Shown: piece by piece, positions 2 through 28,142 of the stretch
How the letters are laid out: every line of letters begins with the position of its first letter
Numbering within the stretch: the stretch's first letter is position 1
Source: a virus
Strand: one strand, 5' to 3'
DNA: 64,000 nucleotides
IMG/VR virus record: IMGVR_UViG_3300031840_000582
Location: 1-64,000 of that record
Made by a program: the position numbers and the translations under genes
Notes under the pieces: model-generated
Databases searched by the model: none
What the model was told of the DNA's origin: nothing
Seen by the model: only the letters and a program-made list of their open reading frames with translations

Positions 2-115
2 TCCGACCGGCTCGACAAGCTGGAAGGCGCGCCGGCCTCGCGGCCCGGGCCGCTGCCCCTGGACGGCCCGCCGGACGGCCGCGCCGACGCCCTCGCCGCG
101 CTGGAGAAACCATGA
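2..115 (+). CDS. C-terminal end of an unidentified bacterial protein (partial)
   Basis: An open frame runs from the left edge to a TGA at 113-115 and encodes 37 residues rich in Ala, Pro, Gly and Asp, ending ALAALEKP. The stop overlaps the next start as ATGA, the usual sign of translational coupling within an operon. In bacteria, otnC genes commonly sit beside a four-carbon sugar-acid kinase or dehydrogenase gene, so this could be the end of such a gene. I do not recognise the fragment and the family assignment would be a guess. The GC-rich composition matches the following aldolase fragment and not the phage DNA beyond base 450. Confidence 0.5.
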   Translation, partial: SDRLDKLEGAPASRPGPLPLDGPPDGRADALAALEKP

Positions 116-449
116 CCGAGGAAACCCGCCTTCGCGAACAGATCTGCCTGCTCGCCAAGTCCCTCTTCGACCGGGGCCTCACCCACGGCTCCACCGGCAA
201 CATCTCCGCCCGCACCCCCGATGGCGGCCTCCTCGTCTCGCCCACCGGCACCTCCTTCGGCCGCCTCGACCCGGGCCGCCTCTCCCGCTTCGACGCCCAA
301 GGCACCCTGATCGACGGCGACAAACCCACCAAGGAAATGCCCCTCCACACCGCCTTCTACGACACCCGCGCCACCGCCGGCGCCGTCGGGCACCTCCATT
401 CCACCCACTCCGTCGCCCTCTCGATGCTGCCCGACGCCGACCCCGACGA
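112..449 (+). pseudogene. Class II aldolase, OtnC-like (3-oxo-tetronate 4-phosphate decarboxylase type), 3'-truncated
   Basis: About 113 residues match the N-terminal half of the class II aldolase/adducin fold. Visible marks are the phosphate-binding GSTGNISAR segment (residues 26-34), the SPTGTSFGRL segment, the KPTKEMPLH stretch with its catalytic-type Glu, and the metal-binding HLHSTHSVALS pair of histidines. In the known family the enzyme decarboxylates 3-oxo-tetronate 4-phosphate in four-carbon sugar-acid catabolism. The family is about 210 residues, so roughly half is missing. The match ends at DPDD near base 449, where the frame continues into unrelated phage protein and base composition changes abruptly. 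I read this as a truncated bacterial gene joined to phage DNA, most likely by assembly or amplification. Confidence 0.75.
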
Positions 450-8577: not shown

Positions 8578-8580
8578 TAG

Positions 8581-9651
8581 ATGCTTTTTGCTAACAAAAA
8601 AGAAGAAGTAATAGACATAGAATTGACGCCACACGGTAGATATCTTTTATCACTTGGGCGTCTCAAGCCTGTGTATTATTCATTCCATGATAATAATATT
8701 CTTTATGATGGTCGATATGCAGAGATCGTGGAGTATTCAAAAGATATTGAAGACAGGATCCAACACGAGACGCCACAACCCAAGACATTGAACACGAGAG
8801 CTAGCAGAGAAAAGAACACAAAGAGAATTTTTGAAACAAATCTCGCGTTGGCTAGTAGCGTTGACAGAGCAACAGAGCTTGCATCTGTCGCCCAAATGAA
8901 TGAGCAGAAGGCTTTCTTGGCAACGCATCCAATTGGAACATGCTCACCAACCACAGATCAGGCACCCAAATGGTCAATTAAAGTATTGAACGGGGAGATT
9001 AGTGGATCGATCCCTTACCTGACCTCTAGCTACCAGACTTTAGAAATTCCACAAATTGATATTGATGTGGTCTACAAGACTGCTATTTTGGATGTGAATG
9101 ATCCGGGCTTAGTGTTACCAATCAAGCCAGACCCCGCACTTTCTAGCAACGTGTACAGTGATGGAACTTATGTGGCGATTGATCCAGACCACTTGTTGCT
9201 AGAAATCTTAGAGGAAAACACTGAATACAATAAAACAAACTTTGAGGTTGAAGTGTTCGAGGTAGAGAACGAAGACTATGTATCAGCTAAGGCTGGCCTC
9301 TCAGGCACGGAAGTTAGACAACAAGAATTAAAACCATTATTCTTCAAGAAGCCTGTTGAAAATATTGTCAACAACATTCTAGTAGATGATGCCGAATTGC
9401 CAAAGCCGCCAGCGATTGGTGACAATCCACGCATGGTAAATTATTATTTTAATGTTTTTGTAGACGAGGAGATTGATCCTGCTGACATTTGTGAGGCCAA
9501 AGAAGAACTTGACAAGAAAAACCTCTTTGTCGATCTCGACGTTGTGTGCGCTCCTAATGCAGCTACTCCAACAAGATACGATGTCTACACCGGACCAGAT
9601 CCGCTTGCACCTTGTCCAGTACCTCAAGAAGGTACGGACTGTAACGATTAG
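8581..9651 (+). CDS. Virion-associated protein of unknown function (356 aa)
   Basis: The gene starts 3 bases after the stop of the giant protein, using AAGGA in the end of that gene as its ribosome site. The N-terminus (KKEEVIDIELTPHGRYLLSLGRLKPVYYSFHDNNILYDG) is a pattern I associate with structural genes of marine phages. The rest is acidic, with no catalytic motif and no membrane segment. The tail is Pro/Cys/Asp-rich (PCPVPQEGTDCND). Its position between two huge virion proteins argues for a role in the same appendage or its assembly. Function is not recognised. Confidence 0.65.
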   Translation: MLFANKKEEVIDIELTPHGRYLLSLGRLKPVYYSFHDNNILYDGRYAEIVEYSKDIEDRIQHETPQPKTLNTRASREKNTKRIFETNLALASSVDRATELASVAQMNEQKAFLATHPIGTCSPTTDQAPKWSIKVLNGEISGSIPYLTSSYQTLEIPQIDIDVVYKTAILDVNDPGLVLPIKPDPALSSNVYSDGTYVAIDPDHLLLEILEENTEYNKTNFEVEVFEVENEDYVSAKAGLSGTEVRQQELKPLFFKKPVENIVNNILVDDAELPKPPAIGDNPRMVNYYFNVFVDEEIDPADICEAKEELDKKNLFVDLDVVCAPNAATPTRYDVYTGPDPLAPCPVPQEGTDCND

Positions 9652-9663
9652 GAGTCAGTTTAA

Positions 9664-12600
9664 ATGGGTATTTTTGTAAATTCTGTTAACGTTGATGACG
9701 CGACTCTTACTATCGGCCTTAGTGCGGAAGAACTTTATCGACCAATCAACCCAGACTGCCCTCCACCCGCTGACAGTAGCTCAGGCCCCGGTGGTGGCCT
9801 TAACATAATTCCAAGTGATCCTGTAACTGAACCTCCTTCTGGTTACACTCCCGAAGCCGGTGATAGTGGCTGGTATTATGATGAATGTATGGATTGCTGT
9901 TACCCAGTGACAGATAAAATCCTTAATTATATGGAGTTTAAGGTTGCGACATTTCTTTCGCCGGGTTATACTCAAAACATTACTTGTGAGGAAGTAGACG
10001 TAGACGCTATAGTCACCTCCGCTGAAGCCGCTGGTGACGCTGTTGTTGTGGCTATTGACCCAAGACTTCATGCTGCTGGGACGCTATCTAATGCGTTGGT
10101 CAAGGAGAAGAGCGACGGTTCTCGCGCTTATGAATTAAATTATAATGCCACCATTGAATTGCCTGACGGGGCAGACACTGATCACATTGAAGTGGTGTCA
10201 TATGTAAATATTGATTTTGAACGAATGAAGAACGATTACGGCTTTGAGGCAGGCAATAATTTGCAAGCAGAGACTATAAAATTGATGGCACTTAAGGCGA
10301 ATTTAGATAAGGTTCGAGAGCGTGGCAAAGTAAACGAGACAATCCCATACTTTGTGAATCCTGCAACAGGCAAGACATGGACCGGGCCAGTTCATTATCA
10401 CCCGCCGACAAGAGGCTATATGGGCGGCGCAAAGCACACGATGTTACCACAGCCCCTGTTGGTCCAGAGAACAATGCCGAACTTAAAAGTTGTGGATAAT
10501 TCCACTACAAAAAAAGAACTATTAGGTTTGGATTTAGGCCGCGCATTAACAAATGACCCATACGATGAAATTGATAGACTAAACAGCACCGGGACTAAAC
10601 AGCAAGTTGCCAAGACGTTTGTATCAGATCCTGTGTTGTCAAAAACTAACGACGGAAAAGTTAGCTTTGTCTTTTACATGGATCCTGAATCTGTGGTCAG
10701 AGCTAACAGTAAATTTCCCGGTATTAGGGAGCAGGGCATTTATCGAAGAACCCCAATTGAAAGCATTCAAATTTTTCGTGAGCGTGCTATCGAAGGTGCC
10801 GATCTCACAGAACTAGGCGTCAAAAAAGTTGGCAAGGACACCAGAGGCAAGCAATCACAAGAGAGGGAGCTAGTGGTTTATTCGTCAGACCAAAAGTCAT
10901 ACGGCGAAGACATGCAAACTATGAACGGTGCAGTGAAAGATGTGTACTCAAGAGGACTACAAACTAATAGATATTCCGTTGATGAAGACTTTGATGGCAT
11001 CAAGGAAGTGGAAGTAGGGATTATTTCTGAGACACCGGTTCGAAACATCACTAGTAGAGGATACCGTGCATTTACAGTAGAAGACATGCAAATCTCTAAT
11101 AGAACTTCAGGTAAATTTAGATATTCCACTGAGATTGAATTTAAAGATCCAACTGTAGCTTACATTAATCGAAAGTTAGCCGTGATTTGCGAAGCCAAAG
11201 ATAAGTTAGAGGAACTAGTTTCGTTCATTGACAACGTAAAAGCTTACGATATGTTGAACAAAAAATACACTAGAGATTATAAGAAAAGGTACAAGAGGGC
11301 ACATACTAGAACCGCTAAGATGGTGACTAGAGAGGTCATGAAGCTGCTAAAAGCAATTACCGGACAAAGCTTTAGTGCGGCACAAAATTATATGATATCT
11401 AACCTAAGTGTTCAGAACGGCAGTCCTCAAGGTATTGAAAATATAATTGAAGTGATAGGCTCAATAGAAGACAAGCTAAAGCTAGCTCTTGGCAACAGTA
11501 TTGACAATGCAAATACAAATAATGCTGGCGCTGAAAAAGATCCTACTATCTCCAAAAAGTCAAATGCAGATTTGGGGATGGTTCGCGTAGAAAAAGAGTT
11601 TGATGCAATTGTCGATCAAACAAATGAGCGCCCATTGAAACTAGACTACACAACCGCAAGGGCCAATAGCTTCCCCAGCATGACTGACAAGTCTTACGAA
11701 GAGAGAATCAATTTAGAACGTAGAAAGTTCTACTCAGACTCGAATACTCGTCGTAGGAATAACGCTAAAAGTAGGTCTAATTTACCTAAAAGAAAGCTTC
11801 AAGCTCTTAGTAGAAGTCGTAACAGATCAGATTACAGCTACCTTACACCAGCATTTGTTAGATGTGGCACAACAACCATGGATCTGGTTGGTGACAATAC
11901 ACAGATAGACAATCTAGAACAGTATAAGAGTATTAATTTTAGGTCCGCAAGAGGTAATAAGCCACTGTCTGTTGAAGCACCACCTGAAAATACTAGCATG
12001 CTAGAATTATCTGAAGACATATTGACAGAGTTGGGAATCTCTGTAACGCTACGCCCAACAGAATCAAGTAAAGACAAGCAGTACAATAGTGATAGCACTA
12101 AGGTATTTGGATCAAAAAGCTTTGCTGACAAAAACACTGAACCGGATAGGATTGCAAAGAAGCCAAAGAGAGATAGATTTGTGATGTCGGCCACCGAAAC
12201 CATTGCCACAGCGGTATTAAACAAGGCTCAAGATACCGACATATTAAATCCAGATGCGCCAATTAATCAAGACCAAGAAATTCCAGACATAACGGATGCG
12301 ACAGAGAGTCGAAAGCTTGCAATTTCAAAATTTGATGTCCTAAGAGAGGATAACATCTTAAATGATCTTGATGCATCTAAGATTGAACAAATGCCAATTG
12401 GCTTACGAGCATTGTTTGATTCAAGAGACGATGCAAGATTTAATTGGGTCGATCATGATCTTGACCTTGTAAAGGATCCAAGAGTGCAAGATATATTTAC
12501 TTACAATCAAGGTAGCACTGTAAAAGTTGAATATTTAGCCGACTTTGAATCAACCTTTGGCGGCAAATCACTTAAGAAGCCGCGATACTCTCCACTAACA

Positions 12601-13014
12601 AAAGAAGTGATAGATAGTGTCCCTGAGGGAGAATCCCTTCTCGTCAGATTGCGACCAATTAGTCTAAATGAATTTGGCGTTCCAGACGATTCGGTGCCCA
12701 GCTTAGGTGCTGATATATTGACAGAAAACTTTTTTATCACCTCGACTACGCCTTCAACAACAGGAGTAGTTGCAGTTGACCCGGTTACAAGAATGGAGGA
12801 GAGTCCAGAGATTACTGATGTCGAAACGCAAGTAAATGCAGTATACGACATGATCCCTGACGAGCCTTCGACTGTATCATATGTTTGTGTCGCAGGCGTT
12901 TCTGGCCGCATCCAGTCTGCAAATCTAGGCGCAACACTTTTTGCTGGCGATTCACGCCCCGGCCCTTTAATGCGGCCAGTTAGTTCAACGAGCACAGGAG
13001 GCGGCGGTTACTAA
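9664..13014 (+). CDS. Large virion structural protein (1116 aa)
   Basis: An AGGAG site precedes the ATG. The N-terminal region has a Pro/Gly-rich stretch and a Cys cluster (DECMDCCYP). A segment near residue 235 holds several His and Gly (VHYHPPTRGYMGGAKH). A very basic region near residues 530-720 (KKYTRDYKKRYKRAH, RRKFYSDSNTRRRNNAKSRS) could contact nucleic acid or an acidic partner. The protein ends in a Gly-rich string closed by Tyr (STGGGGY), like its downstream neighbour. No enzyme signature was found. Its TAA overlaps the next ATG as TAATG, so the two are probably translated together. Structural role is inferred from context. Confidence 0.65.
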   Translation: MGIFVNSVNVDDATLTIGLSAEELYRPINPDCPPPADSSSGPGGGLNIIPSDPVTEPPSGYTPEAGDSGWYYDECMDCCYPVTDKILNYMEFKVATFLSPGYTQNITCEEVDVDAIVTSAEAAGDAVVVAIDPRLHAAGTLSNALVKEKSDGSRAYELNYNATIELPDGADTDHIEVVSYVNIDFERMKNDYGFEAGNNLQAETIKLMALKANLDKVRERGKVNETIPYFVNPATGKTWTGPVHYHPPTRGYMGGAKHTMLPQPLLVQRTMPNLKVVDNSTTKKELLGLDLGRALTNDPYDEIDRLNSTGTKQQVAKTFVSDPVLSKTNDGKVSFVFYMDPESVVRANSKFPGIREQGIYRRTPIESIQIFRERAIEGADLTELGVKKVGKDTRGKQSQERELVVYSSDQKSYGEDMQTMNGAVKDVYSRGLQTNRYSVDEDFDGIKEVEVGIISETPVRNITSRGYRAFTVEDMQISNRTSGKFRYSTEIEFKDPTVAYINRKLAVICEAKDKLEELVSFIDNVKAYDMLNKKYTRDYKKRYKRAHTRTAKMVTREVMKLLKAITGQSFSAAQNYMISNLSVQNGSPQGIENIIEVIGSIEDKLKLALGNSIDNANTNNAGAEKDPTISKKSNADLGMVRVEKEFDAIVDQTNERPLKLDYTTARANSFPSMTDKSYEERINLERRKFYSDSNTRRRNNAKSRSNLPKRKLQALSRSRNRSDYSYLTPAFVRCGTTTMDLVGDNTQIDNLEQYKSINFRSARGNKPLSVEAPPENTSMLELSEDILTELGISVTLRPTESSKDKQYNSDSTKVFGSKSFADKNTEPDRIAKKPKRDRFVMSATETIATAVLNKAQDTDILNPDAPINQDQEIPDITDATESRKLAISKFDVLREDNILNDLDASKIEQMPIGLRALFDSRDDARFNWVDHDLDLVKDPRVQDIFTYNQGSTVKVEYLADFESTFGGKSLKKPRYSPLTKEVIDSVPEGESLLVRLRPISLNEFGVPDDSVPSLGADILTENFFITSTTPSTTGVVAVDPVTRMEESPEITDVETQVNAVYDMIPDEPSTVSYVCVAGVSGRIQSANLGATLFAGDSRPGPLMRPVSSTSTGGGGY

Positions 13015-16000
13015 TGAGTTTAACTAAAAAATACGTTTACGTCCATCACTGTAGTTTAGCTGAAGACACGCCTGATAATTTTAGAAAAGTTATGGGTCGG
13101 GCTTGGGTGCCAAGCTCTAGACTTGGGTTACAGTACGGATTTAATGTAGATCCTCCCGTTATGGATATGACATTTGGGCCTTACTTAGAGTGGGAGCACG
13201 ATTATTTCTTCTCGACCCAAGTACCAGCAACAACTCAGCTAGTCTCAATTAAACCAAATCCGTACTACTTCCCGCCGATCCCTGATGCCGAAGAGCCTTG
13301 TTGCGGTTGGTATGCATACCTCGGAAGGTTCTTTGCAGATCATTTTAGTAGTGGTAATCCGCTACAGATCCTAAGAGGAGTTCTAAAAGACAGAGTTGCT
13401 GGCTATAGAGCGTCCCTGTCTGATCTCGGCTACTCTGGGCCAATCGACCAGAAGTATTTCCCAGATGACTCGTGCGGAAGAAGGCTAAATTATGGGCCAA
13501 TCCAGTCCGACGACCCTGAAGACACGCCACCACCTGAGGTTAATATTCCGGGTGCGATGGCCTTGGTCTCAAATTCAATGGCCGTTCCTGTTAACCCAAA
13601 CCAAGCCGGTCCAGAACCAGAACAAGCCGAAACAAATAGGGCAAAAGTCAGGTTGTTCAGAGACCTTTGGTTTCAAATGTTCGCGCCTTTTTCAGAGCTT
13701 GAAGATGGGTATCTTGAAGGTAAGCCTAAGGCAATGGTTGGCGATGTTAAATTTAGCTATAACTTTTTCCTAGAGGCCTACGAGCGTCAGCTCAGAGGAA
13801 ATACTTTACCAGAAATTAGAATACCAAACTTATACTTGTCCGTGTATAAGGACGGATCAGTACCATATGTGCTATATCTAAGTGAAAATGTAGGCTGTAG
13901 ATTCAAAGAATTTGCTAAGTTAGTTCTGCAAAAGGGATACACAGAGTACCTAATTCCTGTTAAGCAGCAACCGTTTTTACAAGATAAGAATGTGTATTCT
14001 AAATCATTCCCGATGGATGCCACAGTTTCTTTCAGCACTGACAGGAATACTTTTGTTGCAGATGCTCTTGAGGACTCGAAACTAGAGTGTAACATGCTCC
14101 GTAGAGTGTCGGAAGGCGAGGTCAGGCTAGACGTTGCAACCACACCGCCAACTGCTTTTACTCCAACCTCTGAAGGCAACCTCAAGCCACCCCCTGAAGA
14201 GACAATGGAGTTTGCCTATGCAAAGCGTTACTACGATACTTTGTCGAACGCATATACTCCAAAAGCAAGCGTGCCAAATCAAGTAAGCAATTATAAAGCA
14301 TCTTACGGCCCGTTTGGTAGAGACTTGAGGACGTTCGATTTTTATCAATGGATGATGAGTCTACCAGATATCCCTGCTTCTTCAGTGTCGTTCCCCGGCG
14401 ATCATGTTTTTCTTGGTAACCAAAACGATTCCACCGACATGGCCTTAAGGTCCGGCCTATACCAAAGAGACTTGTCATACTTGGCGAATTACTTTATTAT
14501 GTCAGGTAAGGTTAACCAGATAGCCGAAACCCATCTCAGAACTTATCAGCAAATGATGAGAGGTGACACACCACACTCCGAAACTATTCTTTATAAATTA
14601 TCTAAGTATTCGACAGCCGAACTACAACAGCAGTTAGAGACAGTTCTATCTTCTAGTCCAATGTTGCGCGATCAGATCTTGCTTGGTAACGATGGGACCG
14701 CTGCCTTGGCTGGTGAAGACTTTGAAAAACTTGAAGCTATATTCGACGAAATTGAACAGATCGGCATTACTCCAATTCAAAATGTGTGGATTCCCAACTC
14801 TAACTCAATTGACATTTTTGAATATGTTGATACACAAGTAAAGTATAATAAAGAGTACACATACGTTGTAACTGCATACCAGTTGTCTGTTGGGACCGAG
14901 TATTTTTACTCTCAGTATTTTGGCCAAAGACCAGAAGATCCACAGCCACAGCCATGTGAAAACGCTACAATTGGTAATCAAGCCATTGCAGGAGTCTACA
15001 ATCTACAAGAGTCACCTCTGGATGTAACAGGGGTTCCACCAACAGGAACTGCTGTACCGCTATTAAGAATTGTTTACGATGCCTCGCTATCCGAAGGAGA
15101 AAAGTACAATCTTATAAACCAATTACTGTCAGAGAACAGCCAGTGGAAAAGCTTAACTGGTGGTGGAACGGTTGATACCTGCGAAGGTACTGGCATGGCA
15201 ATCCTCAGAAGGCAGATCTCCGATGGAGGCACCGACCAGTCAGGGCAAAGTTTTGGTCCCGAATTTGAATACCTTGTGCTTTGTTACTGTTTTGATTTCT
15301 TCAACCCCAATCCAGATCAGTGGTCTGTTGTAACAATAATTGAAAACAAGCAAGTAAGATCATCCGGCGATCAAACAGCCGGGACTGGTAAAAACGAACC
15401 AGCTTGTACAATTTATGGTCAGCTTAGAGTTGCCCTACGAGCTGAATTAAATTTAGTTGACGCATCATCGATAACTGACGAGATCTTAGAAGTGTTCGGC
15501 GTCACAGACCCTGCGGACCTCCCAACCTACCAGAGAACAACCACGGTCAGAGGGCGACTAAGAGCAGAGCAGTGTCCAGACGGTTGGATAGAGGGCAAAG
15601 TACAGAGACAAGTTACAACAGCAGAAGCCACATCATATGCAGCAGGATTTGAGGTAACTGCACTTGGGGCCACTGAACTTAAAGCAGTCTGCGAATGTCC
15701 CGAGCCTGAACCTTGCAGGGAAACCTTCTTGGTTACAACATTCCCAAGTTTAAAAGTTCATGAAATTCCGTACATGTTGTGGTCCGGCAAGGTCACAGAC
15801 TCTCATCCCGTAGGCCCCGATGTAGAAATTAATCCTTACAGAGCTGTTAATAACGAGATGTTATTCCAGATAGGTGCAGGTCTTGGCGATTACTACGACC
15901 GCCCAATTGCCATTTTTGAAAGAGAGAAGGCAATGTTCGAAGAGCTGTTAAGATCTCAGCGGTCAACTGATGGTAATGTCTTGTTTAGTTCAGACGATCC

Positions 16001-16808
16001 AGTTAGAGGGTTTGAGTCACTTATGTTAACTGACAAGCCCACAAGATATACTGACTTCTCAACCGGCGTAAGAAAACTTATATCAACAGAGGTTGCAGAA
16101 AAACCAAATCAATATGCAGATGCAGTATCTATGGTCGAAACTCTTGTTCCGAATCAAAAATATTATTATATCTTCAGATCTATTGATGTTCATGGGCACG
16201 TTTCAAACCCAACACCAATTTACGAAGTGGAACTAGTTGACACAGACGGTGCCATTTATCCATTAATTAATATTTATGAACCAGATCCAAGCTTGCCTGT
16301 CGATCTAAGCAAGCAAGGCCAGAGACTATTGCAGATTAGGCCTGAGTACCTACAATCAGTATTAGATGTAGAATCATCTGGCTTGTCCGATGCGACAACA
16401 GCCGGTACACCTACAGGCGGACCCGCTGGAGATCTCAAGCTAGGAACAAGAAGTGAGAGACTGTGGGATAAGAACTTTAAGATGCGCGTCACATCGTGTG
16501 AAACTAGAAGGATGCTAGAAATCAATCTCAAATTTAAGACTGAGCATATTGCACTGGACGCCTGCCCCCCAGAGTACGAAAAGACTACGATTAGTGCTAA
16601 CGATGGCCTCAGTATTCCTGATGGAGTAATGGATTTGATTCCGGGTAGCGAAAGTAAGCCTTCAAACGGTTCAGCTCCGAGATCTGGAGGCGGCTCCACT
16701 TCTGGTGGTACAACCGTGACAGCAGATGTTAGCAACACTATATCACTAATAAACGGCTCAGGTGGAGGCACGACTGGCGGTGGATCAACTGGCGGTTCTT
16801 CATATTAA
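13014..16808 (+). CDS. Large virion structural protein with Gly/Ser-rich tail (1264 aa)
   Basis: The ATG shares one base with the preceding stop; GGAGG lies just upstream. The protein is mostly beta-rich. A segment near residues 600-630 (IDIFEYVDTQVKYNKEYTYVVTAYQLSVG), and another near 1040-1080 (NQKYYYIFRSIDVHGHVSNPTPIYEVEL), read like fibronectin-type beta sandwiches. The Cys-containing middle (CEGTG, LCYCFDFF, CECPEPEPCRE) could bind metal or form disulphides. The last 50 residues are Gly/Ser/Thr-rich and end in Tyr. No catalytic motif was seen. It is probably a tail-tip, baseplate or fibre-network protein. Exact role is unknown. Confidence 0.65.
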   Translation: MSLTKKYVYVHHCSLAEDTPDNFRKVMGRAWVPSSRLGLQYGFNVDPPVMDMTFGPYLEWEHDYFFSTQVPATTQLVSIKPNPYYFPPIPDAEEPCCGWYAYLGRFFADHFSSGNPLQILRGVLKDRVAGYRASLSDLGYSGPIDQKYFPDDSCGRRLNYGPIQSDDPEDTPPPEVNIPGAMALVSNSMAVPVNPNQAGPEPEQAETNRAKVRLFRDLWFQMFAPFSELEDGYLEGKPKAMVGDVKFSYNFFLEAYERQLRGNTLPEIRIPNLYLSVYKDGSVPYVLYLSENVGCRFKEFAKLVLQKGYTEYLIPVKQQPFLQDKNVYSKSFPMDATVSFSTDRNTFVADALEDSKLECNMLRRVSEGEVRLDVATTPPTAFTPTSEGNLKPPPEETMEFAYAKRYYDTLSNAYTPKASVPNQVSNYKASYGPFGRDLRTFDFYQWMMSLPDIPASSVSFPGDHVFLGNQNDSTDMALRSGLYQRDLSYLANYFIMSGKVNQIAETHLRTYQQMMRGDTPHSETILYKLSKYSTAELQQQLETVLSSSPMLRDQILLGNDGTAALAGEDFEKLEAIFDEIEQIGITPIQNVWIPNSNSIDIFEYVDTQVKYNKEYTYVVTAYQLSVGTEYFYSQYFGQRPEDPQPQPCENATIGNQAIAGVYNLQESPLDVTGVPPTGTAVPLLRIVYDASLSEGEKYNLINQLLSENSQWKSLTGGGTVDTCEGTGMAILRRQISDGGTDQSGQSFGPEFEYLVLCYCFDFFNPNPDQWSVVTIIENKQVRSSGDQTAGTGKNEPACTIYGQLRVALRAELNLVDASSITDEILEVFGVTDPADLPTYQRTTTVRGRLRAEQCPDGWIEGKVQRQVTTAEATSYAAGFEVTALGATELKAVCECPEPEPCRETFLVTTFPSLKVHEIPYMLWSGKVTDSHPVGPDVEINPYRAVNNEMLFQIGAGLGDYYDRPIAIFEREKAMFEELLRSQRSTDGNVLFSSDDPVRGFESLMLTDKPTRYTDFSTGVRKLISTEVAEKPNQYADAVSMVETLVPNQKYYYIFRSIDVHGHVSNPTPIYEVELVDTDGAIYPLINIYEPDPSLPVDLSKQGQRLLQIRPEYLQSVLDVESSGLSDATTAGTPTGGPAGDLKLGTRSERLWDKNFKMRVTSCETRRMLEINLKFKTEHIALDACPPEYEKTTISANDGLSIPDGVMDLIPGSESKPSNGSAPRSGGGSTSGGTTVTADVSNTISLINGSGGGTTGGGSTGGSSY

Positions 16809-20901: not shown

Positions 20902-21431
20902 TGGTCTGCGGACTTGACATCAGTACGAGCATAACAGGGTATACTCTTATAGATCAAGATGGCAATGTGGTGTTGAATGGTGCTTGGGATACAAGAAAAT
21001 ATAAAGACTTCTTTGAAAAGGTGATACATGTTAAAGCAGGTTTGGAGCAAATCTACAGTCAATACGGCAAACAAATTACAGCGATTTATATCGAACAGTC
21101 GCTACAATCGTTCCGTTCAGGTTTCTCATCTGCGAAGACTCTCTCAACTTTGTCTCGTTTTAACGGCATCGTGTCTTGGCTTGTTTTTGATCAATATAAA
21201 ATTAAGCCAGAATACATCGCGGCTACGTCTGCCAGAAAACTTTGTGGCATCAAAATACCGAGGGGCGAAAAGGCAAAACAAGTTGTCTTAAAATTTTTAC
21301 TTGACAACGAGCCTAGTTTCGTGATAGATTATACTCGTAACGGCAACCCTAAGCCTGAGTCCTATGATAAAGCAGACTCAATAGTGATTGCCAAAGCGGG
21401 GGTTATATGCGAGAGGAAAAGCTTAAAATAA
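20898..21431 (+). CDS. RuvC-like Holliday junction resolvase
   Basis: The 177-residue protein has the RNase H-fold signature of RuvC enzymes. It opens with GLDIST (Asp7), carries IYIEQS with Glu66 after the central strand, and ends with YDKADSIVIAKA (Asp157 and Asp160), giving the expected acidic catalytic set. Such enzymes cut four-way junctions; in phages without endonuclease VII they would debranch DNA before packaging. The gene overlaps the HNH gene by 4 bases at the 5' end and the primase by 25 bases at the 3' end, so the three are likely co-translated. A second ATG directly follows the first and could be the true start. Confidence 0.8.
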   Translation: MMVCGLDISTSITGYTLIDQDGNVVLNGAWDTRKYKDFFEKVIHVKAGLEQIYSQYGKQITAIYIEQSLQSFRSGFSSAKTLSTLSRFNGIVSWLVFDQYKIKPEYIAATSARKLCGIKIPRGEKAKQVVLKFLLDNEPSFVIDYTRNGNPKPESYDKADSIVIAKAGVICERKSLK

Positions 21432-22336
21432 TTAAGAATGTTCTTGGCCGAAGCTACAACGCTGGCCACGAGCATCTGTTTCATTGTCCGTTCTGCAAAC
21501 ATCACAAGATGAAGTTGTCTGTGAATGTGGACAAGTCTGCGTTCAAGTGTTGGATCTGTGATAAGTCAGGTCGTGATCTAGGATACATTGTTCGTAAATT
21601 TGGAACACGCCAAGATCGTGACGAATGGTTGAAGTACGAAGACCGAGTGGAGATCACCGACTTTGACTTCCTGTTTGCAGAGCCTGAGACGCCCTCTGAG
21701 CAGCGCGTCGATCTACCCAAGGACTTGGTTACCCTAACGGGTAGCAAGCCCTCTATGACCTCACAGATCGCTTTAAATTACTTGTCTAAGCGTGGCATCA
21801 CTAAACATGACATCCTCAAGTGGAAGATTGGCTACTGTCCCGATGGAGAATATGGTGGTCGTATTGTGATTCCATCATTTAACGAAAATGGCTACGCAAA
21901 TTATTTTGTTGCTCGCTCTTATGGTGACGCTTGGCCAAGATATAAGAACCCGCCTGCAAGTCGCGATATTATTTTCAATGAATTGTATGTAAATTGGGAT
22001 GAAGACATAATTATAGTAGAGGGGGTATTTGACGCAATAAAGGCTGGTAATGCTATTCCTCTTCTTGGATCAACGCTTCGCGAATCTTCTGCTCTTTTTC
22101 AGGCCATTGTTAAAAATGGTAACACTGTTTATTTGGCTTTGGACGAAGATGCATCCAAAAAGACACGCTCTATCGCTCGACTGTTGCTTAAGTACGGAGT
22201 AAAAGTTTATGAAATTGATACAAGTGGCGTTGAAGATGTTGGAAGTATGTCTAAAAACGAGTTCCAAAGTCGTAAAAACGATGCGGCGATTGTGGAAAAA
22301 GATAACTATTTATTGCAAAGGCTTTTTGCGATCTAA
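21407..22336 (+). CDS. DnaG-type DNA primase
   Basis: The 309-residue product combines an N-terminal zinc ribbon (C27-x2-C30, H32/H33, C48-x2-C51) with a TOPRIM domain. The TOPRIM Glu lies in IIIVEGVFDAI (about residue 205) and the DxD-like acidic pair in LALDEDA (about residue 246). This is the primase layout that makes RNA primers for lagging-strand synthesis. It is shorter than bacterial DnaG and lacks a visible helicase-binding domain, like T4 gp61-type primases. A GGGGG ribosome site precedes the ATG, which lies inside the resolvase gene. No replicative helicase is seen in this window. Confidence 0.85.
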   Translation: MREEKLKIIKNVLGRSYNAGHEHLFHCPFCKHHKMKLSVNVDKSAFKCWICDKSGRDLGYIVRKFGTRQDRDEWLKYEDRVEITDFDFLFAEPETPSEQRVDLPKDLVTLTGSKPSMTSQIALNYLSKRGITKHDILKWKIGYCPDGEYGGRIVIPSFNENGYANYFVARSYGDAWPRYKNPPASRDIIFNELYVNWDEDIIIVEGVFDAIKAGNAIPLLGSTLRESSALFQAIVKNGNTVYLALDEDASKKTRSIARLLLKYGVKVYEIDTSGVEDVGSMSKNEFQSRKNDAAIVEKDNYLLQRLFAI

Positions 22337-22348
22337 GAGGAACAAGCT

Positions 22349-23626
22349 ATGAGAATTATACTAGAGAACTGGAATGAGTTTATTAATGAAGCCAACAAGG
22401 AATCAGAAGCCCAGCGCGCCGTCAACAATTTAAAACTAGAGCCTAAGCAAGCTGAAGCAGCTCTTGCCATGTTGCAGGGCGAAAAGTCTCAACTTGAAGA
22501 AGGGGTGATGGATTCAATTAATAGTCTAGTTAAAAGATATGGCAAGCGAGCGATTATGGCCGCTCTTGCAGCGTCACTTTCTGCTGGTGCTGTCCTTCCT
22601 AAAGATGCCTACGCTTCTGGTGGCGAGTATAATGTTGATACTGATGCGGATGCTGCTGCTCAAGTAATGGACACTGGGTCAGAGCAGGCCGTGGACGCAG
22701 CCGCTGCTCTTGGTTTTGTTAGCACATATGTAGACCTCAAAATCGAAAAAGGAGCAGACCGAGTGGATACGAACCTTAAGTTTGCCCCTATCATGGATGC
22801 TTTGGCAAAAGCAAAAGGCGGCGATATGTCTGCTTATAAATCTCTTAGTAGCAAAAACAAGTCAATGTATGATTTCTTTATGGGTAAAGTAAAAGACATG
22901 AAAACAAAAGATGCAAAAGCCTATGATGGATATTCAGCTTTGGGAGCTGGAACAAAAGTATCACAGAAGGGATTACAGGAGAACACTGCAATGAGACTTA
23001 CAAAGAAACAGTTAAAACAAATTATTAAAGAAGAGCTTCAAAAAGCTATGAATGAAGTATCAGAAAAAGAAGTTGTGAAGATGGCCCAGAAGATGGCTCC
23101 TAATGCTCCTAGTACGCCTGTTAAGGAAAAAGGACAGGAGGCAATTTCATTGCTCTTACAAGATCCAAAGATCCGAAATATTGTTGGTGGCATAGTCGCA
23201 GACATAGCAAATAGCGGAGACTCAGAAAATGTCATGTCTGAGGACAAGGAAGGTGGTAGTGCAGCAGCAAGCCTTCTCTCTCTAGGGACGTTTGGCGCGC
23301 CTATGTTATATATGGCCATGGGCTCTCCCGGCTATACTGCTCTTCTAAACTATCTGGGTGGCGATGCCTTGGCAGCAAACCTTTCTGTTCAGCTTGGCAT
23401 ACCCCTCGCAGCGCTAGCTACTGCGTTAATCGCTGGCATGGGCGCTGCGGCATACAAAGATATTATGGATCCTAATGTTGACACAATTGTGGGACCATAC
23501 AACGCAGAAGATTTCTCTGATTTGAAGATACCATACAAGCCTGATGGATCTGCCCCAACGCAAGGTATTGGTCGTAACATTTTTGGCGACCCACAGGTAC
23601 AGCCTCTAAGAACAAGGAAAAAATAA
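22349..23626 (+). CDS. Putative internal head protein carrying two targeting tags (425 aa)
   Basis: The start is ATG after AAGAGGAAC. The N-terminus RIILENWNEFINEA resembles the capsid-targeting peptide of T4 internal proteins, which is cut after an I/L-x-E motif by the prohead protease; FINE|A fits. A hydrophobic stretch (IMAALAASLSAGAVL, about residues 71-85) follows. At residue 215 a second tag appears (MRLTKKQLKQIIKEE), with its own AGGAG. The C-terminal half has two hydrophobic segments (FGAPMLYMAMGSPGYTALL and LGIPLAALATALIAGMGAA). No enzyme motif was seen. It may be two ancestral genes joined, and may make two products. Ejected or internal capsid role is inferred. Confidence 0.55.
   Translation: MRIILENWNEFINEANKESEAQRAVNNLKLEPKQAEAALAMLQGEKSQLEEGVMDSINSLVKRYGKRAIMAALAASLSAGAVLPKDAYASGGEYNVDTDADAAAQVMDTGSEQAVDAAAALGFVSTYVDLKIEKGADRVDTNLKFAPIMDALAKAKGGDMSAYKSLSSKNKSMYDFFMGKVKDMKTKDAKAYDGYSALGAGTKVSQKGLQENTAMRLTKKQLKQIIKEELQKAMNEVSEKEVVKMAQKMAPNAPSTPVKEKGQEAISLLLQDPKIRNIVGGIVADIANSGDSENVMSEDKEGGSAAASLLSLGTFGAPMLYMAMGSPGYTALLNYLGGDALAANLSVQLGIPLAALATALIAGMGAAAYKDIMDPNVDTIVGPYNAEDFSDLKIPYKPDGSAPTQGIGRNIFGDPQVQPLRTRKK
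22991..23626 (+). other. Possible internal translation start giving a separate 211-residue protein
   Basis: An ATG at 22991 lies in frame in the gene starting at 22349 and is preceded by AGGAG at a 9-base gap. The peptide from there begins with the same tag as the proteins encoded at 23628, 24326 and 24640. Just upstream, GLQE|NTAM would also fit a prohead-protease cut, so the split could be translational or proteolytic. Confidence 0.4.
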
Positions 23627-23627
23627 A

Positions 23628-24329
23628 ATGAGACTTACCAAATCACATCTAAAGCAAATTATTAAAGAAGAATCTCAAGCTGTTTTGGCAGAGAGGTGGG
23701 AACTACAACGTCAGCGTTCCATCATGCTTGCTGAGTCAAAACGGATTGATAATTTGCACGAGATTAGCCTTTCAGATGTAGCCAGTTTTGCTAAGAATGA
23801 GCTTCCTCATCTCGCACTAGATGTGGCCGGTCTAATTCCGGGCTTTGGAGAAGGGGCCGATTTGGCCAATGCTGGCCTATACATTAGCAAGGGCGAATAC
23901 TTTATGGCAGCTTTGTCTCTTCTATCAATGATCCCAGCGGTGGGAGATGTTGTAGGAAAGGGCGGAAAGTTCTTGACAAAGTTTGGCGATGACGCTGGAA
24001 AGGCGTCAAAGTATTTGGGTGGGTTACTTAAAAAGTACATGCCACAAATTCAAAAGCTATTGAAGACACTTAAGGACAACCCAGTTGTCGGGCCTCATGT
24101 TGACGACATCCTGCGTGCAGTCACAAAATATATTGACGACGCTGCTGAGGTCGGAGCGAAGGCAGGCAAAGAAACACTTCAAAGACTCCAGCAGGCGATT
24201 CAGACCAGACCAGTTAAGCCGATTGAAGGTGGTACTTTGAAGAAATTAGCTGTTCGCACAAAGGCAAGAAAAGATCGCGAGAAAGCGGCCTCGGCACTTC
24301 AAGGCAGAGAACAGGAGGCAGCAGAGTGA
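23628..24329 (+). CDS. Tagged putative internal head protein with pretoxin-like hydrophobic domain (233 aa)
   Basis: The gene begins one base after the previous stop. It opens with MRLTKSHLKQIIKEE, the shared tag. Residues about 65-110 (LDVAGLIPGFGEGADLANAG, then SLLSMIPAVGDVVGKGGKF) form a Gly-rich hydrophobic hairpin. That pattern resembles the pretoxin segments of polymorphic toxins and other membrane-inserting helices. The remainder is a Lys-rich amphipathic helix region. Together the tag and hydrophobic module suggest a protein packed in the head and delivered with DNA, perhaps interacting with the host membrane. That is a hypothesis. The stop overlaps the next start (GTGA). Confidence 0.5.
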   Translation: MRLTKSHLKQIIKEESQAVLAERWELQRQRSIMLAESKRIDNLHEISLSDVASFAKNELPHLALDVAGLIPGFGEGADLANAGLYISKGEYFMAALSLLSMIPAVGDVVGKGGKFLTKFGDDAGKASKYLGGLLKKYMPQIQKLLKTLKDNPVVGPHVDDILRAVTKYIDDAAEVGAKAGKETLQRLQQAIQTRPVKPIEGGTLKKLAVRTKARKDREKAASALQGREQEAAE

Positions 24330-24601
24330 TTCTTAATGAACAAACACTCAAGCGAATCATAAAAGAAGAGCTAGTAACTGTTCAGTTACGGCTGTTACAA
24401 GAGAACCCTGCATTGCTAACCAAGTTTGTACCTATGATTCAAAAGCTTGCACCGCAAATTCAAGATCTTGGCCCTGCGATTGAACAGTATGGTCCCGTGA
24501 TGACCCAGCTAATTAGCATGGTTAAGGATCTAGATGATGAGAAGTTACAGCAAGTCATGAGCCTTGTGGCAAGTGTAGGCCAATTAGGCAAAGACGACTG
24601 A
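24326..24601 (+). CDS. Small tagged putative internal head protein (91 aa)
   Basis: The start is GTG, coupled to the preceding TGA as GTGA, with AGGAGG upstream. The N-terminus MILNEQTLKRIIKEE is a variant of the shared tag, with the I-K-E site for the prohead protease. The rest is a regular amphipathic helix series (MIQKLAPQIQDLGPAIEQYG) without Cys or catalytic residues. Its position in a run of four tagged genes is the main evidence for a virion-internal role. Confidence 0.5.
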   Translation: MILNEQTLKRIIKEELVTVQLRLLQENPALLTKFVPMIQKLAPQIQDLGPAIEQYGPVMTQLISMVKDLDDEKLQQVMSLVASVGQLGKDD

Positions 24602-24639
24602 TATACAATATAGTTCAGAATACTAAAGGAATAATAAAG

Positions 24640-24984
24640 ATGCAAATTACCAAAGAAAGGCTCAAACAAATTATTAGAGAAGAAATGGAAGTCACGCTCA
24701 CCAATGAAGAGGCTGGTGAACTATTTGGCGAAGAAGTACAGCAACAGCTTGACGAAGTAGATATGTCTTCCATGGTAGACCCACAGCTCATGGAAATCGT
24801 CGCAGGCCTTTTCAAGATGGGCGTGAACATTGGTTTACCCTTAGTAATCGCCGCACTTTCTCGTATGGGATACGAGGGTATCGCATCAGCTTTGTCACAA
24901 GAGCCAATGGCACGCAAGGACAAAAATTTCCTTATGAATTACATCCAGCAAGAACTCGAAGGATATAAAGAATTCGATAAATAA
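24640..24984 (+). CDS. Small tagged putative internal head protein (114 aa)
   Basis: AAAGGA precedes the ATG. The protein starts MQITKERLKQIIREE, again the shared tag with an I-x-E cut site. An acidic linker follows, then a hydrophobic helix (LFKMGVNIGLPLVIAALSRM, about residues 57-76) that could span or insert into a membrane, then a short polar end. It closes the four-gene tagged cluster. A perfect sigma70-type promoter begins 4 bases after its stop and separates it from the nuclease-ATPase gene. Confidence 0.5.
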   Translation: MQITKERLKQIIREEMEVTLTNEEAGELFGEEVQQQLDEVDMSSMVDPQLMEIVAGLFKMGVNIGLPLVIAALSRMGYEGIASALSQEPMARKDKNFLMNYIQQELEGYKEFDK

Positions 24985-24987
24985 TCC

Positions 24988-25016
24988 TTGACAGCAGAGC
25001 TGCTGCGTGTTATAAT
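24988..25016 (+). promoter_or_regulatory. Perfect sigma70-type promoter
   Basis: TTGACA (24988-24993), a 17-base spacer and TATAAT (25011-25016) match the host consensus at all 12 positions. It lies just before the Mre11/Rad50-like fusion gene. Transcription would begin near 25022-25024, leaving a very short leader. This marks the gene as early or middle, read by host RNA polymerase. Confidence 0.85.
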
Positions 25017-25031
25017 ATATTATAAATTCAA

Positions 25032-28000
25032 GTGGGGGTAAACTTGAAGTTTGCACATATCGCGGATACACACATCCGCAATTATAAGTATCATAAAGAA
25101 TATCGAGCTATCTTCGATCAAATTTATGACCGATTGAAAAAAGAGAAAGTTGACTACATTGTACATTGTGGCGACTTAGCACATACAAAAACACAACTTT
25201 CTCCTGAATATTTTGATTTGGCTGCATCGTTCCTGAGTAATCTTGCGGACATTGCGCCTACCTATATCATTCTTGGAAACCATGATGGCAACCTTAAGAA
25301 CGAGCACAGGCAGGATGCAATTACGCCTATTGCAAAGGCACTAAACCATCCAAATCTACATCTCTTGCGAGACGCAGGCGAGACTGTGCTAAGCGATGAC
25401 TTAGCATTTAATGTTCTATCTGTGTTCGATGAGGAGAATTGGGTCAAGCCATCCAGCGACGAACGTATCAATATCGCGCTGTATCACGGTTCTGTATCAG
25501 GCGTTAAGACTGACACAGGCTGGGTGATGACACATGGCGACCACCCAATCGAAGTCTTTGAGGGACATGATTATGTGTTCCTTGGAGATATTCACAAAAC
25601 GAACCAGATCCTTGATGATGAGGGTCGGGTAAGGTATCCGGGCTCCACTGTTCAACAGAACTTTGGTGAGACAGATGACAAAGGATTCTTGCTGTGGAAC
25701 ATCCAAAGCAAAGATGACTTTACTTGTGACCACATCGTAATTCCGAATCCCAAGCCTTTTATAACAATAAATCTAACCCCCACCGGGCGCATGCCCAAAG
25801 GCTTATCTGTTAAAAAGGGATCGCGTTTACGACTTGTGTCTAACAATAATTTGTCTCTTGAAGCGATGCGGAAGGCAGTAGATGTCGCAAAACAACGCTT
25901 CAAGCCCGATACCATATCGTTTCTTAACCGCGCCGCTGGGGAGCGTGGCAACGTTGAAGAAATCACCGATAGTATTCATCAGGATGATATGCGTAACCCG
26001 CAGATTCAAGAGGAATTAATTCGTGAGTATCTGGTAGACTACCAAGTTACCGAAAGCTTGATGAAGAAGGTACTAGACCTAAACTCACTATACATCAAGA
26101 AAGCCGAAGAAAGCGAAGAAATTTCTAGAAACATTAAGTGGCGTATTGGTGAGCTACAATGGGATAATTTGTTTAACTACGGAGACAGCAATCGAATTGA
26201 CTTTGCTCGTCTGAACGGAACTGTTGGTATCTTTGGAAAGAATTATTCTGGCAAGTCCAGTATTATTGATAGCTTATTGTATACAATTTTTAATACAACT
26301 TCCAAGAACGAGCGTAAGAACGTAAATATTATCAACCAGAACAAAGAAGATGGTTCAGGCGAAGTGGTCATCAACATTGGTGATGAACAATATTACATCC
26401 GACGAAGCTCGTCTAAATACACAAAGCGACTCAAGGGGGTCGAGACTCTTGAAGCAAAAACCGATCTTGACTTTTTCAAGATTGATGCGAACGGAGAAAA
26501 GGTAAGTTTAAATGGACTCACAAGAAACGACACAGACAGAAACATCAGAAAGGTATTCGGATCCATTGATGACTTTCTACTCACTAGTTTGTCTAGCCAG
26601 TTGGATAGTCTTTCCTTTATTAGGGAAGGCAGCACAAAACGGAAGGAAATCTTGGCAAAGTTTCTCGACTTGGAGATCTTCGAAAAGAAATTCAAACTAG
26701 CAAAAGACGATGCTGCTGATATGAAGGGTGCTCTTCGACGCTTGGAAGGCAGGGAGTATGACGCCGAGATCGAAGCAGCAGAGCAAGAGCATGCTCAATG
26801 TGAAGAGAACCTAGAAGAACAGCAGTCTGTTTGCGAGACTCTCAGAAACGAAATATCCAAATTAGTTTCTGGCATTGAAGAAGTAGATCGTATGATCGAT
26901 TCTATCCCAGCGGAAATGATTGATATCGTAAACGTTAAGGCTGAACTAGTGCGTAAGCGTTCCTTGTTAGAGAGAACACAGAATAGTCTAAAAAATAACA
27001 AGACAAATTTACAAGAGAAAGAAGCACTCGTTGAGAAAATTGAAGAGTTTCTAGACAACTATGATATTGAAGACTTAATTAAGAAGCAAAGCGATTCAAG
27101 CAATCTCTGGAATCGGATCAATGATTTGCGAGCGGAGCTTGAACGAATTGATAAAAAGGCCTCGTCCCTAAACGACCCTGAGTTTCTAAGAGGTTGTAAG
27201 TGTCTTCGTGAAGCAGAGGACGCACTGGCTAAGAAGCCAGAGGTTCAAGAGAAGATCGATATATTTACCACTGAGCACCGTGCGATGGACCCGGAGGGTG
27301 TAGACAAGAAGGTGGAGCAATATAACTCTTTGGTTGCTAAGAAAGACCAAACTCAGAGAGATATTACCAACACACAATTGCTAATCGCTCAGAATGAAAA
27401 TTCTATGAGTAGCCTAATCTCTGATATCGAAGCTTTGGAGGAAAAAGAATCTTCTTACGAAGATAACAAAGAAGCGATTGAAAACTTAGAAGCTCTGCTG
27501 GCACAGAAGCAAGAGAGTGAGTCTGCTCTACAAGACCGTGAAACAAAGCTACAAGCTTGTGAAAAAGAGATTGTTACCCATCATCGTCTTGTTGGTTCGT
27601 TAGAGCAGAAGGTGCTAAATATCAAAGAACAAAAGCAAGAGTACATTGATCTTCGTGAGCAGTTTGCGGCATATGATCTATACATGCGCTGTATGCACCC
27701 TAATGGTATTGCTTATGATGTCATTAAAAAGAAGCTGCCGGTTATCAATCAAGAGATTGCGAAGGTTCTCGCCAACCTCACTACCTTTGAGGTTCTTTTT
27801 GAAGAAGAGGGAAATAAGCTAGATATCTTTATCAAGCACCCAAGCCATGACCCTCGACCGCTATCAATGGCATCTGGGGCAGAGAAAACAATGGCTGCAA
27901 TGGCGATTCGTTTGGCTTTCCTAGCCGTATCTAATTTACCAACCAGCGATATCATGGTTCTGGACGAGCCGGGTACTGCTTTAGATGAAGAACATTTGCA

Positions 28001-28142
28001 GTCCTTTACGCAGCTTCTTGACATGATTAAGGCACATTTCAAGACCATTTTGCTAATCTCGCACCTTGACTCTTTGAAAGATGTTGTAGATTCAACACTT
28101 GACATTTCTAAGAAACAAGGTTATGCTTATATAAATCAGTAA
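25032..28142 (+). CDS. Fused SbcD/Mre11-like nuclease and SbcC/Rad50-like ATPase
   Basis: One 1,036-residue chain carries both halves of the recombination nuclease that T4 encodes as gp47 and gp46. The N-terminal phosphoesterase has ADTHI (Asp12), HCGD (45-48), LGNHD (near 82-86), an ALYHGS histidine and LGDIH. The ABC-type ATPase follows: Walker A GKNYSGKS (402-409, Lys408), a long Glu/Lys-rich coiled coil (about 560-880), signature MASGAEKTMA near 947, and Walker B MVLDEPG (Asp978, Glu979). The zinc hook is atypical: C722-K-C724 instead of CxxC. A GTG at 25032 opens the frame, but TTG at 25044, after GGGGG and better placed from the promoter, may be the true start. Likely role: end resection in recombination-dependent replication. 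Confidence 0.9.
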   Translation: MGVNLKFAHIADTHIRNYKYHKEYRAIFDQIYDRLKKEKVDYIVHCGDLAHTKTQLSPEYFDLAASFLSNLADIAPTYIILGNHDGNLKNEHRQDAITPIAKALNHPNLHLLRDAGETVLSDDLAFNVLSVFDEENWVKPSSDERINIALYHGSVSGVKTDTGWVMTHGDHPIEVFEGHDYVFLGDIHKTNQILDDEGRVRYPGSTVQQNFGETDDKGFLLWNIQSKDDFTCDHIVIPNPKPFITINLTPTGRMPKGLSVKKGSRLRLVSNNNLSLEAMRKAVDVAKQRFKPDTISFLNRAAGERGNVEEITDSIHQDDMRNPQIQEELIREYLVDYQVTESLMKKVLDLNSLYIKKAEESEEISRNIKWRIGELQWDNLFNYGDSNRIDFARLNGTVGIFGKNYSGKSSIIDSLLYTIFNTTSKNERKNVNIINQNKEDGSGEVVINIGDEQYYIRRSSSKYTKRLKGVETLEAKTDLDFFKIDANGEKVSLNGLTRNDTDRNIRKVFGSIDDFLLTSLSSQLDSLSFIREGSTKRKEILAKFLDLEIFEKKFKLAKDDAADMKGALRRLEGREYDAEIEAAEQEHAQCEENLEEQQSVCETLRNEISKLVSGIEEVDRMIDSIPAEMIDIVNVKAELVRKRSLLERTQNSLKNNKTNLQEKEALVEKIEEFLDNYDIEDLIKKQSDSSNLWNRINDLRAELERIDKKASSLNDPEFLRGCKCLREAEDALAKKPEVQEKIDIFTTEHRAMDPEGVDKKVEQYNSLVAKKDQTQRDITNTQLLIAQNENSMSSLISDIEALEEKESSYEDNKEAIENLEALLAQKQESESALQDRETKLQACEKEIVTHHRLVGSLEQKVLNIKEQKQEYIDLREQFAAYDLYMRCMHPNGIAYDVIKKKLPVINQEIAKVLANLTTFEVLFEEEGNKLDIFIKHPSHDPRPLSMASGAEKTMAAMAIRLAFLAVSNLPTSDIMVLDEPGTALDEEHLQSFTQLLDMIKAHFKTILLISHLDSLKDVVDSTLDISKKQGYAYINQ
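28099..28127 (+). promoter_or_regulatory. Sigma70-type promoter candidate
   Basis: TTGACA (28099-28104), 17 bases, then TATGCT (28122-28127) lie in the last codons of the nuclease-ATPase gene, 39 bases before the ATG at 28166. The -35 hexamer and spacing are perfect; the -10 matches 4 of 6. Confidence 0.4.

What the first reader, a model, noticed from the sequence alone, without database searches (positions are those of the whole stretch)
25032..28142. Single-chain Mre11-Rad50 (SbcD-SbcC) fusion with a reduced zinc hook
Nuclease and ATPase motifs of two normally separate proteins are all intact in one 1,036-residue chain. A fusion forces 1:1 stoichiometry. The hook is C-K-C (722-724) instead of CxxC and the coil is short, so tethering between coils may be lost or different.
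Basis: partly seen in the sequence, partly recalled or inferred. Interest (0 to 1): 0.75.

Follow-up and report, generated by a model that had tools for sequence, protein, structure and literature searches.

The report
Phage Mre11-Rad50 fusion, swappable zinc hook
A marine phage makes its DNA-end repair machine (Mre11 plus Rad50) as one protein, a design described in 2011; what looks new is that the zinc-binding tip joining two such proteins has at least five cysteine spacings in its relatives and has been exchanged between them as a small module.

Summary
The ORF is real and is a single-chain Mre11-Rad50. Both halves match in sequence and predicted fold, and catalytic motifs are kept. One nuclease metal ligand is Asp where T4 gp47 has His (GDIH for GHxH), invariant in the family. 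It is no assembly error: 148 fetched loci encode the same architecture in one frame. The fusion is not new. Yoshida et al. 2011 described such fusions (Mimivirus R555, a Bacillus phage, abundant marine viral homologues), and R555 shares the same two motif substitutions. The 'reduced' C-K-C hook is real, but the reading that tethering may be lost is not favoured. Every one of 130 distinct relatives keeps at least two apex cysteines, and the apex is a local peak of conservation in the coil. Spacing varies: C-x6-C (79), CxxC (26), CxC (11), C-x7-C (11), C-x3-C (2), three-Cys (1). On a tree of the head domains, hook types are scattered. CxC occurs in three separate clades, each sister to C-x6-C relatives, and some sister genes differ mainly over about 50 hook codons, which match a more distant relative. 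The hook therefore behaves as an exchangeable cassette. Why it is exchanged is untested. New variant of a known kind.

The parts
24988..25016 (+). Promoter with perfect sigma70 consensus, TTGACA-17-TATAAT, directly upstream of the gene
   Evidence: Read from the sequence; TTGACA-like and TATAAT-like boxes lie at the same place in most close relatives shown
25034..25046 (+). GGGGG Shine-Dalgarno-like run and probable TTG start codon (25044)
   Evidence: TTGAA(G/A) start conserved in L005, L007, L008, L014, L071
25044..28142 (+). Single-chain Mre11-Rad50 (SbcD-SbcC) gene, 1032 aa from TTG (1036 aa from GTG 25032)
   Evidence: 148 loci with the same single-chain architecture
25044..25931 (+). Mre11/SbcD nuclease and capping domain (residues 5-300, GTG numbering)
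   Evidence: Pfam Metallophos; S. aureus SbcD 7dog_B, Z 25.0 over model residues 1-296
25584..25595 (+). GDIH motif (residues 185-188): Asp replaces the first His of GHxH; invariant in the family
   Evidence: the same change reported for Mimivirus R555
25998..26135 (+). Two helices (model 319-333, 337-356), probable helix-loop-helix Rad50-binding domain of Mre11, and a short linker to the first Rad50 strand
   Evidence: AlphaFold2 model; identity as HLH inferred from position
26235..26258 (+). Walker A GKNYSGKS (residues 402-409)
26724..27707 (+). Antiparallel coiled coil with the hook at its tip (about residues 565-892)
   Evidence: Helices 544-710 and 719-884 in the model
27147..27230 (+). 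Hook apex cassette around LNDPEFLRGCKCLREAE (residues 706-733); C-K-C at 27195-27203
27870..27989 (+). ABC signature SGAEK, Walker B and D-loop LDEPGTALDE (residues 947-986)
21407..22336 (+). DNA primase gene upstream of the fusion; found upstream in 47 of 50 relatives with enough flank
   Evidence: PHROG 47, E 6.7e-44; synteny

Best explanation
The gene encodes a phage Mre11-Rad50 DNA-end-processing nuclease made as one chain. Two chains most likely dimerise through the ATPase heads and nuclease domains and again through a zinc hook at the coil tip, where two Cys from each chain (C-K-C here) bind one Zn. ATP-driven closing of the heads would regulate access of the nuclease to DNA ends, giving resected ends for recombination-dependent phage replication, as for T4 gp46/gp47. 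The apex of about 30-50 residues is a self-contained dimerisation module with several cysteine spacings, and it has been exchanged between related phages by recombination. Shown here: fusion, domains, motifs, conserved apex Cys pair, hook-type scatter and mosaic genes. Inferred: dimerisation, zinc binding, activity and role in replication.
For: Domains by sequence and fold; Rad50 3av0_B Z 31.8 (model 364-1032) and SbcD 7dog_B Z 25.0 (1-296); model pLDDT 82.8. Catalytic residues invariant or nearly so in 59 sequences. 148 single-chain loci. At least two apex Cys in 130/130; apex is a local identity maximum in the coil, +19 points over flanks in 106 close pairs. Hook types scattered on a head-domain tree, 23 changes. 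L063/L064 are about 80-95% identical in coding DNA over most of the gene but 40-48% at the hook, where L064 matches L060 and L063 matches L061; informative sites there are 34 for hook partners and 0 for sisters, against 36 and 215 elsewhere. Primase upstream in 47/50, terminase downstream in 42/51. T4 gp46/gp47 act in recombination-dependent replication (PMC3175470). A hook can be replaced by an unrelated dimerisation domain in yeast Rad50 (PMC6969161).
Against: No zinc, dimer or nuclease data exist. The model is a monomer with pTM 0.50 and low confidence at the hook (block mean 54), so geometry cannot be judged. CxC is not a described Rad50 hook; published work calls CxxC absolutely conserved. 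GDIH could weaken or alter nuclease activity. The replication role rests on synteny and analogy.
Confidence: 0.8

Rival explanations
1. The C-K-C hook is degenerate: coil-to-coil tethering has been lost in this branch and the protein works only through its heads.
For: CxC departs from CxxC; the coil is short; low model confidence at the apex.
Against: Both Cys and the surrounding DPxFLxGCKCLxEA are conserved in the 11 CxC members, with small substitutions, in three separate clades whose head domains are about 50-70% identical. A decaying hook should lose a Cys in some of 130 relatives; none has.
Confidence: 0.1
2. Hook scatter is convergence or lineage sorting, not recombination: cysteine spacing drifts freely because any close pair of thiols binds zinc.
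For: Some type changes are small (C-x6-C to C-x7-C is one codon). One chosen quartet (L029/L021/L106/L131) gave no support for exchange. CxC modules are only 53-74% identical in DNA between clades, so those transfers would be old.
Against: L063/L064 and L049/L136 show DNA-level mosaicism spanning more than the cysteines. Shared residues outside the Cys within each type argue for descent.
Confidence: 0.15
3. The fusion is an assembly or sequencing artefact.
For: The window comes from one metagenomic virus record of 66,857 bases.
Against: 148 single-chain loci from many samples; cultured Microcystis phage Mel-JY01 and Tenacibaculum phage pT24 carry one-frame versions.
Confidence: 0.01

Closest known systems
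Mre11/Rad50 fusion proteins, Mimivirus R555 and marine homologues (Yoshida, Claverie, Ogata 2011, PMC3175470)
   Same: Nuclease first, ATPase second, one chain. R555 also has His for the third Asp of GDxxD and Asp for Pyrococcus His206, as here (GDLAH, GDIH). That paper already inferred that aquatic R555-like genes are mostly viral, probably from phages, and noted phage primases on their scaffolds.
   Different: R555 is 1351 aa with a long coil. The passages read do not treat hook cysteine spacing or hook exchange.
T4 gp46/gp47 and other T4-like SbcC/SbcD pairs
   Same: Same two functions, short coil, near replication genes.
   Different: Two genes; CxxC hook (CPTC in T4, Bellamy, P-HM1, phiM19, AG-345-L05); GHxH in the nuclease motif.
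Microcystis phage Mel-JY01 and Tenacibaculum phage pT24 one-chain proteins
   Same: Single chain in cultured phages. Mel-JY01 is about 30% identical over nearly the whole length with a primase upstream; pT24 has GDIH.
   Different: CxxC hooks; pT24 is 1310 aa. Annotated only as AAA domain or DNA repair protein.
E. coli SbcCD and archaeal or eukaryotic Mre11-Rad50
   Same: Domain order within each subunit and head fold.
   Different: Separate chains, long coils and a CxxC hook (the last two from the literature).

Membership tests
Mre11/Rad50 (SbcD/SbcC) fusion proteins | Mre11-type nuclease followed by Rad50-type ATPase in one open frame | tested here: met
Mre11/Rad50 (SbcD/SbcC) fusion proteins | Nuclease metal ligands D-x-H, GD, GNHD, H, GxxH | tested here: met
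   one ligand position is Asp instead of His, as reported for R555
Mre11/Rad50 (SbcD/SbcC) fusion proteins | Walker A, Q-loop, signature, Walker B, D-loop, H-loop | tested here: met
   signature reads SGAEK
Mre11/Rad50 (SbcD/SbcC) fusion proteins | Helical Rad50-binding region and short linker between the halves | tested here: inconclusive
   Two helices at model 319-356 and about 8 residues before the first Rad50 strand; contact with the coil root not measured
R555-like aquatic viral subgroup | Sequence kinship to Mimivirus R555 | not tested
   R555 sequence was not at hand; only the two published motif substitutions were compared
Canonical Rad50 zinc hook | Cys-x-x-Cys at the coil apex | tested here: not met
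   C-K-C; no Pfam Rad50_zn_hook match. That model also missed CxxC relative L061 and hit T4 gp46 only below its cut-off
Canonical Rad50 zinc hook | Zn-dependent homodimerisation | not testable with these tools
   Needs protein

The most novel reading that the evidence does not exclude
The Rad50 hook of marine phages is a diversifying specificity module. Phages swap apex cassettes with different cysteine spacing so that their Mre11-Rad50 pairs only with its own kind, either avoiding mixed dimers with co-infecting relatives or escaping a hook-binding inhibitor made by a host or rival phage.
Probability: 0.2. Interest if true: 0.78.

Novelty: new variant of a known kind. Interest (0 to 1): 0.5.

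Why it matters
The Rad50 hook is described as an absolutely conserved CxxC (PMC13402864; PMC5093744). A large phage family keeps two thiols but uses at least five spacings, and exchanges the tip while keeping the rest of the gene. That offers natural experiments on what a zinc hook needs and whether hook identity controls partner choice. The single-chain form also gives a simple system for Mre11-Rad50 biochemistry.

Tried and rejected
Assembly error: rejected. Hook loss: not favoured. Rfam search for an intron in L002/L070 and for RNAs in the window: no match at gathering thresholds. No other Mre11-Rad50 copy in the window's own record, which is only a 66.9 kb record. Quartet L029/L021/L106/L131 did not support exchange. 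A label-free scan found few sharp dips at the hook (2 of 106 close pairs), because the flanking coil is itself fast-evolving, so the exchange claim rests on the tree and on individual mosaics. The quartets were chosen by hook type, so their P values are biased. The inverted repeat in the promoter spacer is not evident in the relatives shown. Literature searches found no description of non-CxxC Rad50 hooks, but most subscription papers are not held. A key T4 gp46 coiled-coil paper could not be read.

Full report
What is there. The window holds one open frame, 25032-28142 on the + strand, 1036 aa from GTG. A TTG at 25044 behind GGGGG is the likelier start, and the same TTG start recurs in close relatives. 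A perfect sigma70-type promoter, TTGACA-17-TATAAT, lies at 24988-25016, with similar boxes in most relatives shown. Pfam finds a calcineurin-type nuclease at 5-189 and an AAA_23 domain at 375-595. PHROGs finds SbcD-like (5-366) and SbcC-like (304-1034) profiles. An AlphaFold2 model (mean pLDDT 82.8, pTM 0.50) matches Rad50 (3av0_B, Z 31.8, 357 residues, rmsd 4.3) and SbcD (7dog_B, Z 25.0, 277 residues, rmsd 3.8). The two halves are joined by two helices, probably the Rad50-binding domain of Mre11, and about eight residues.

Motifs. Across 59 sequences D12, H14, D48, N83, H84, H152, D186 and H188 are invariant, as are the P-loop Lys, signature Ser-Gly, Walker B Asp-Glu and the H-loop His. D186 stands where T4 gp47 and most split phage SbcD examined have His (GHxH). 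Mimivirus R555 is reported to have the same substitution, and also His in place of the third Asp of GDxxD, as here (GDLAH).

Not an artefact. A protein search of viral contigs gave 79 loci, and a profile search returned 80 (some of them contigs seen before) out of 578 confirmed matches. Of those and the phage and genome loci, 148 encode the full architecture in one frame; most of the others are cut by a contig end. Cultured phages Mel-JY01 and pT24 also have one-chain versions.

Known before. Yoshida et al. 2011 (PMC3175470) described thirteen such fusions, including R555 and a Bacillus phage, and inferred that abundant aquatic homologues belong to viruses, probably phages. So the fusion is a known kind. 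T4-like phages shown here keep two genes.

The hook. In the family the commonest hook is PCGxxFPxCKFIxDA (C-x6-C). Counts in 130 distinct full-length sequences: C-x6-C 79, CxxC 26 (23 of one type, 3 of another), CxC 11, C-x7-C 11, C-x3-C 2, three-Cys 1. All 130 have two or three apex Cys. In 106 close pairs the apex is on average about 19 percentage points more identical than the less conserved flank, a local peak within the coil. This argues for a kept function. Moorella phage MTATph1, with separate genes, has a C-x7-C hook, so odd spacing is not limited to fusions.

Exchange. A tree from head and nuclease columns only, with coil and hook left out, scatters the hook types: 23 parsimony changes, against 48 for shuffled labels, so there is inheritance but also frequent switching. 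Of 73 nearest-neighbour pairs, 23 differ in hook class (that count uses the first regex classes, and some changes are one-codon C-x6/C-x7 shifts). CxC occurs in three separate clades, each sister to C-x6-C sequences with high support (L017, L077, L135). L063 and L064 are about 80-95% identical in coding DNA over most of the gene but 40-48% across roughly 50 hook codons; there L064 resembles L060 (79-81%) and L063 resembles L061 (79-89%), pairs that elsewhere in the coil are mostly 50-70% alike. L049 and L136 share a C-x3-C hook at 74-78% DNA identity within 42-51% flanks, while their sisters L051 and L150 keep C-x6-C. In the window's own quartet (L013, L017, L114, L135; L013 is 100% identical to the window protein) the hook has 11 sites for hook partners and none for sisters; the rest of the protein has 13 and 99. 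These quartets were picked by hook type, so their P values overstate the case, and one other quartet gave no support. Donor and recipient hooks are not identical, which speaks against chimeric assembly.

Mechanism. By family knowledge, two Rad50 heads close on ATP, Mre11 dimerises beside them, and the hook ties the two coils through one zinc ion. [quoted passage not shown] That fits a module that tolerates different cysteine spacings and moves between genes. The gene lies downstream of a primase (47 of 50 loci) and upstream of the large terminase (42 of 51), which fits DNA-end processing for recombination-dependent replication as in T4. Zinc binding, dimers and nuclease activity are inferred.

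Verdict. The hook variety and its exchange appear undescribed in the papers searched and are the part worth following.

Noticed in passing
L154 4164-5092 and L156 6959-7920: A GIY-YIG homing-endonuclease gene (Pfam match for L154) lies between the fusion gene's end and a second copy of its last 65 or so codons (Walker B to the end). It looks as if the element inserted at the Walker B codons and brought a replacement 3' end. L128 has a similar tail copy directly downstream without an obvious endonuclease.
   Followed up: partly
L002 3672-4578 and L070 6654-6752: In two distantly related fusion genes the frame is interrupted just after the GDIH nuclease motif. The first halves end in similar in-frame tails (EEDELEKYLNSGWK / DEKDLDKYLEDGWE). 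L002 carries a 305-codon ORF with a weak TnsA-like endonuclease match. No Rfam intron hit.
   Followed up: partly
window 22349-24984: Four successive genes share a short motif (MRLTKxxLKQIIKEE-like), at the N terminus in three and internal in one; possibly a sorting or prohead-targeting tag.
   Followed up: no
window 24988-25016: The consensus promoter's spacer holds an inverted repeat CAGCAG-AG-CTGCTG (24992-25005), a possible operator; not evident in the relatives shown.
   Followed up: partly
window 112-16808: A 2821-codon ORF (112-8577) and two further ORFs over 1100 codons (9664-13014, 13014-16808) stand upstream of the primase; not examined.
   Followed up: no
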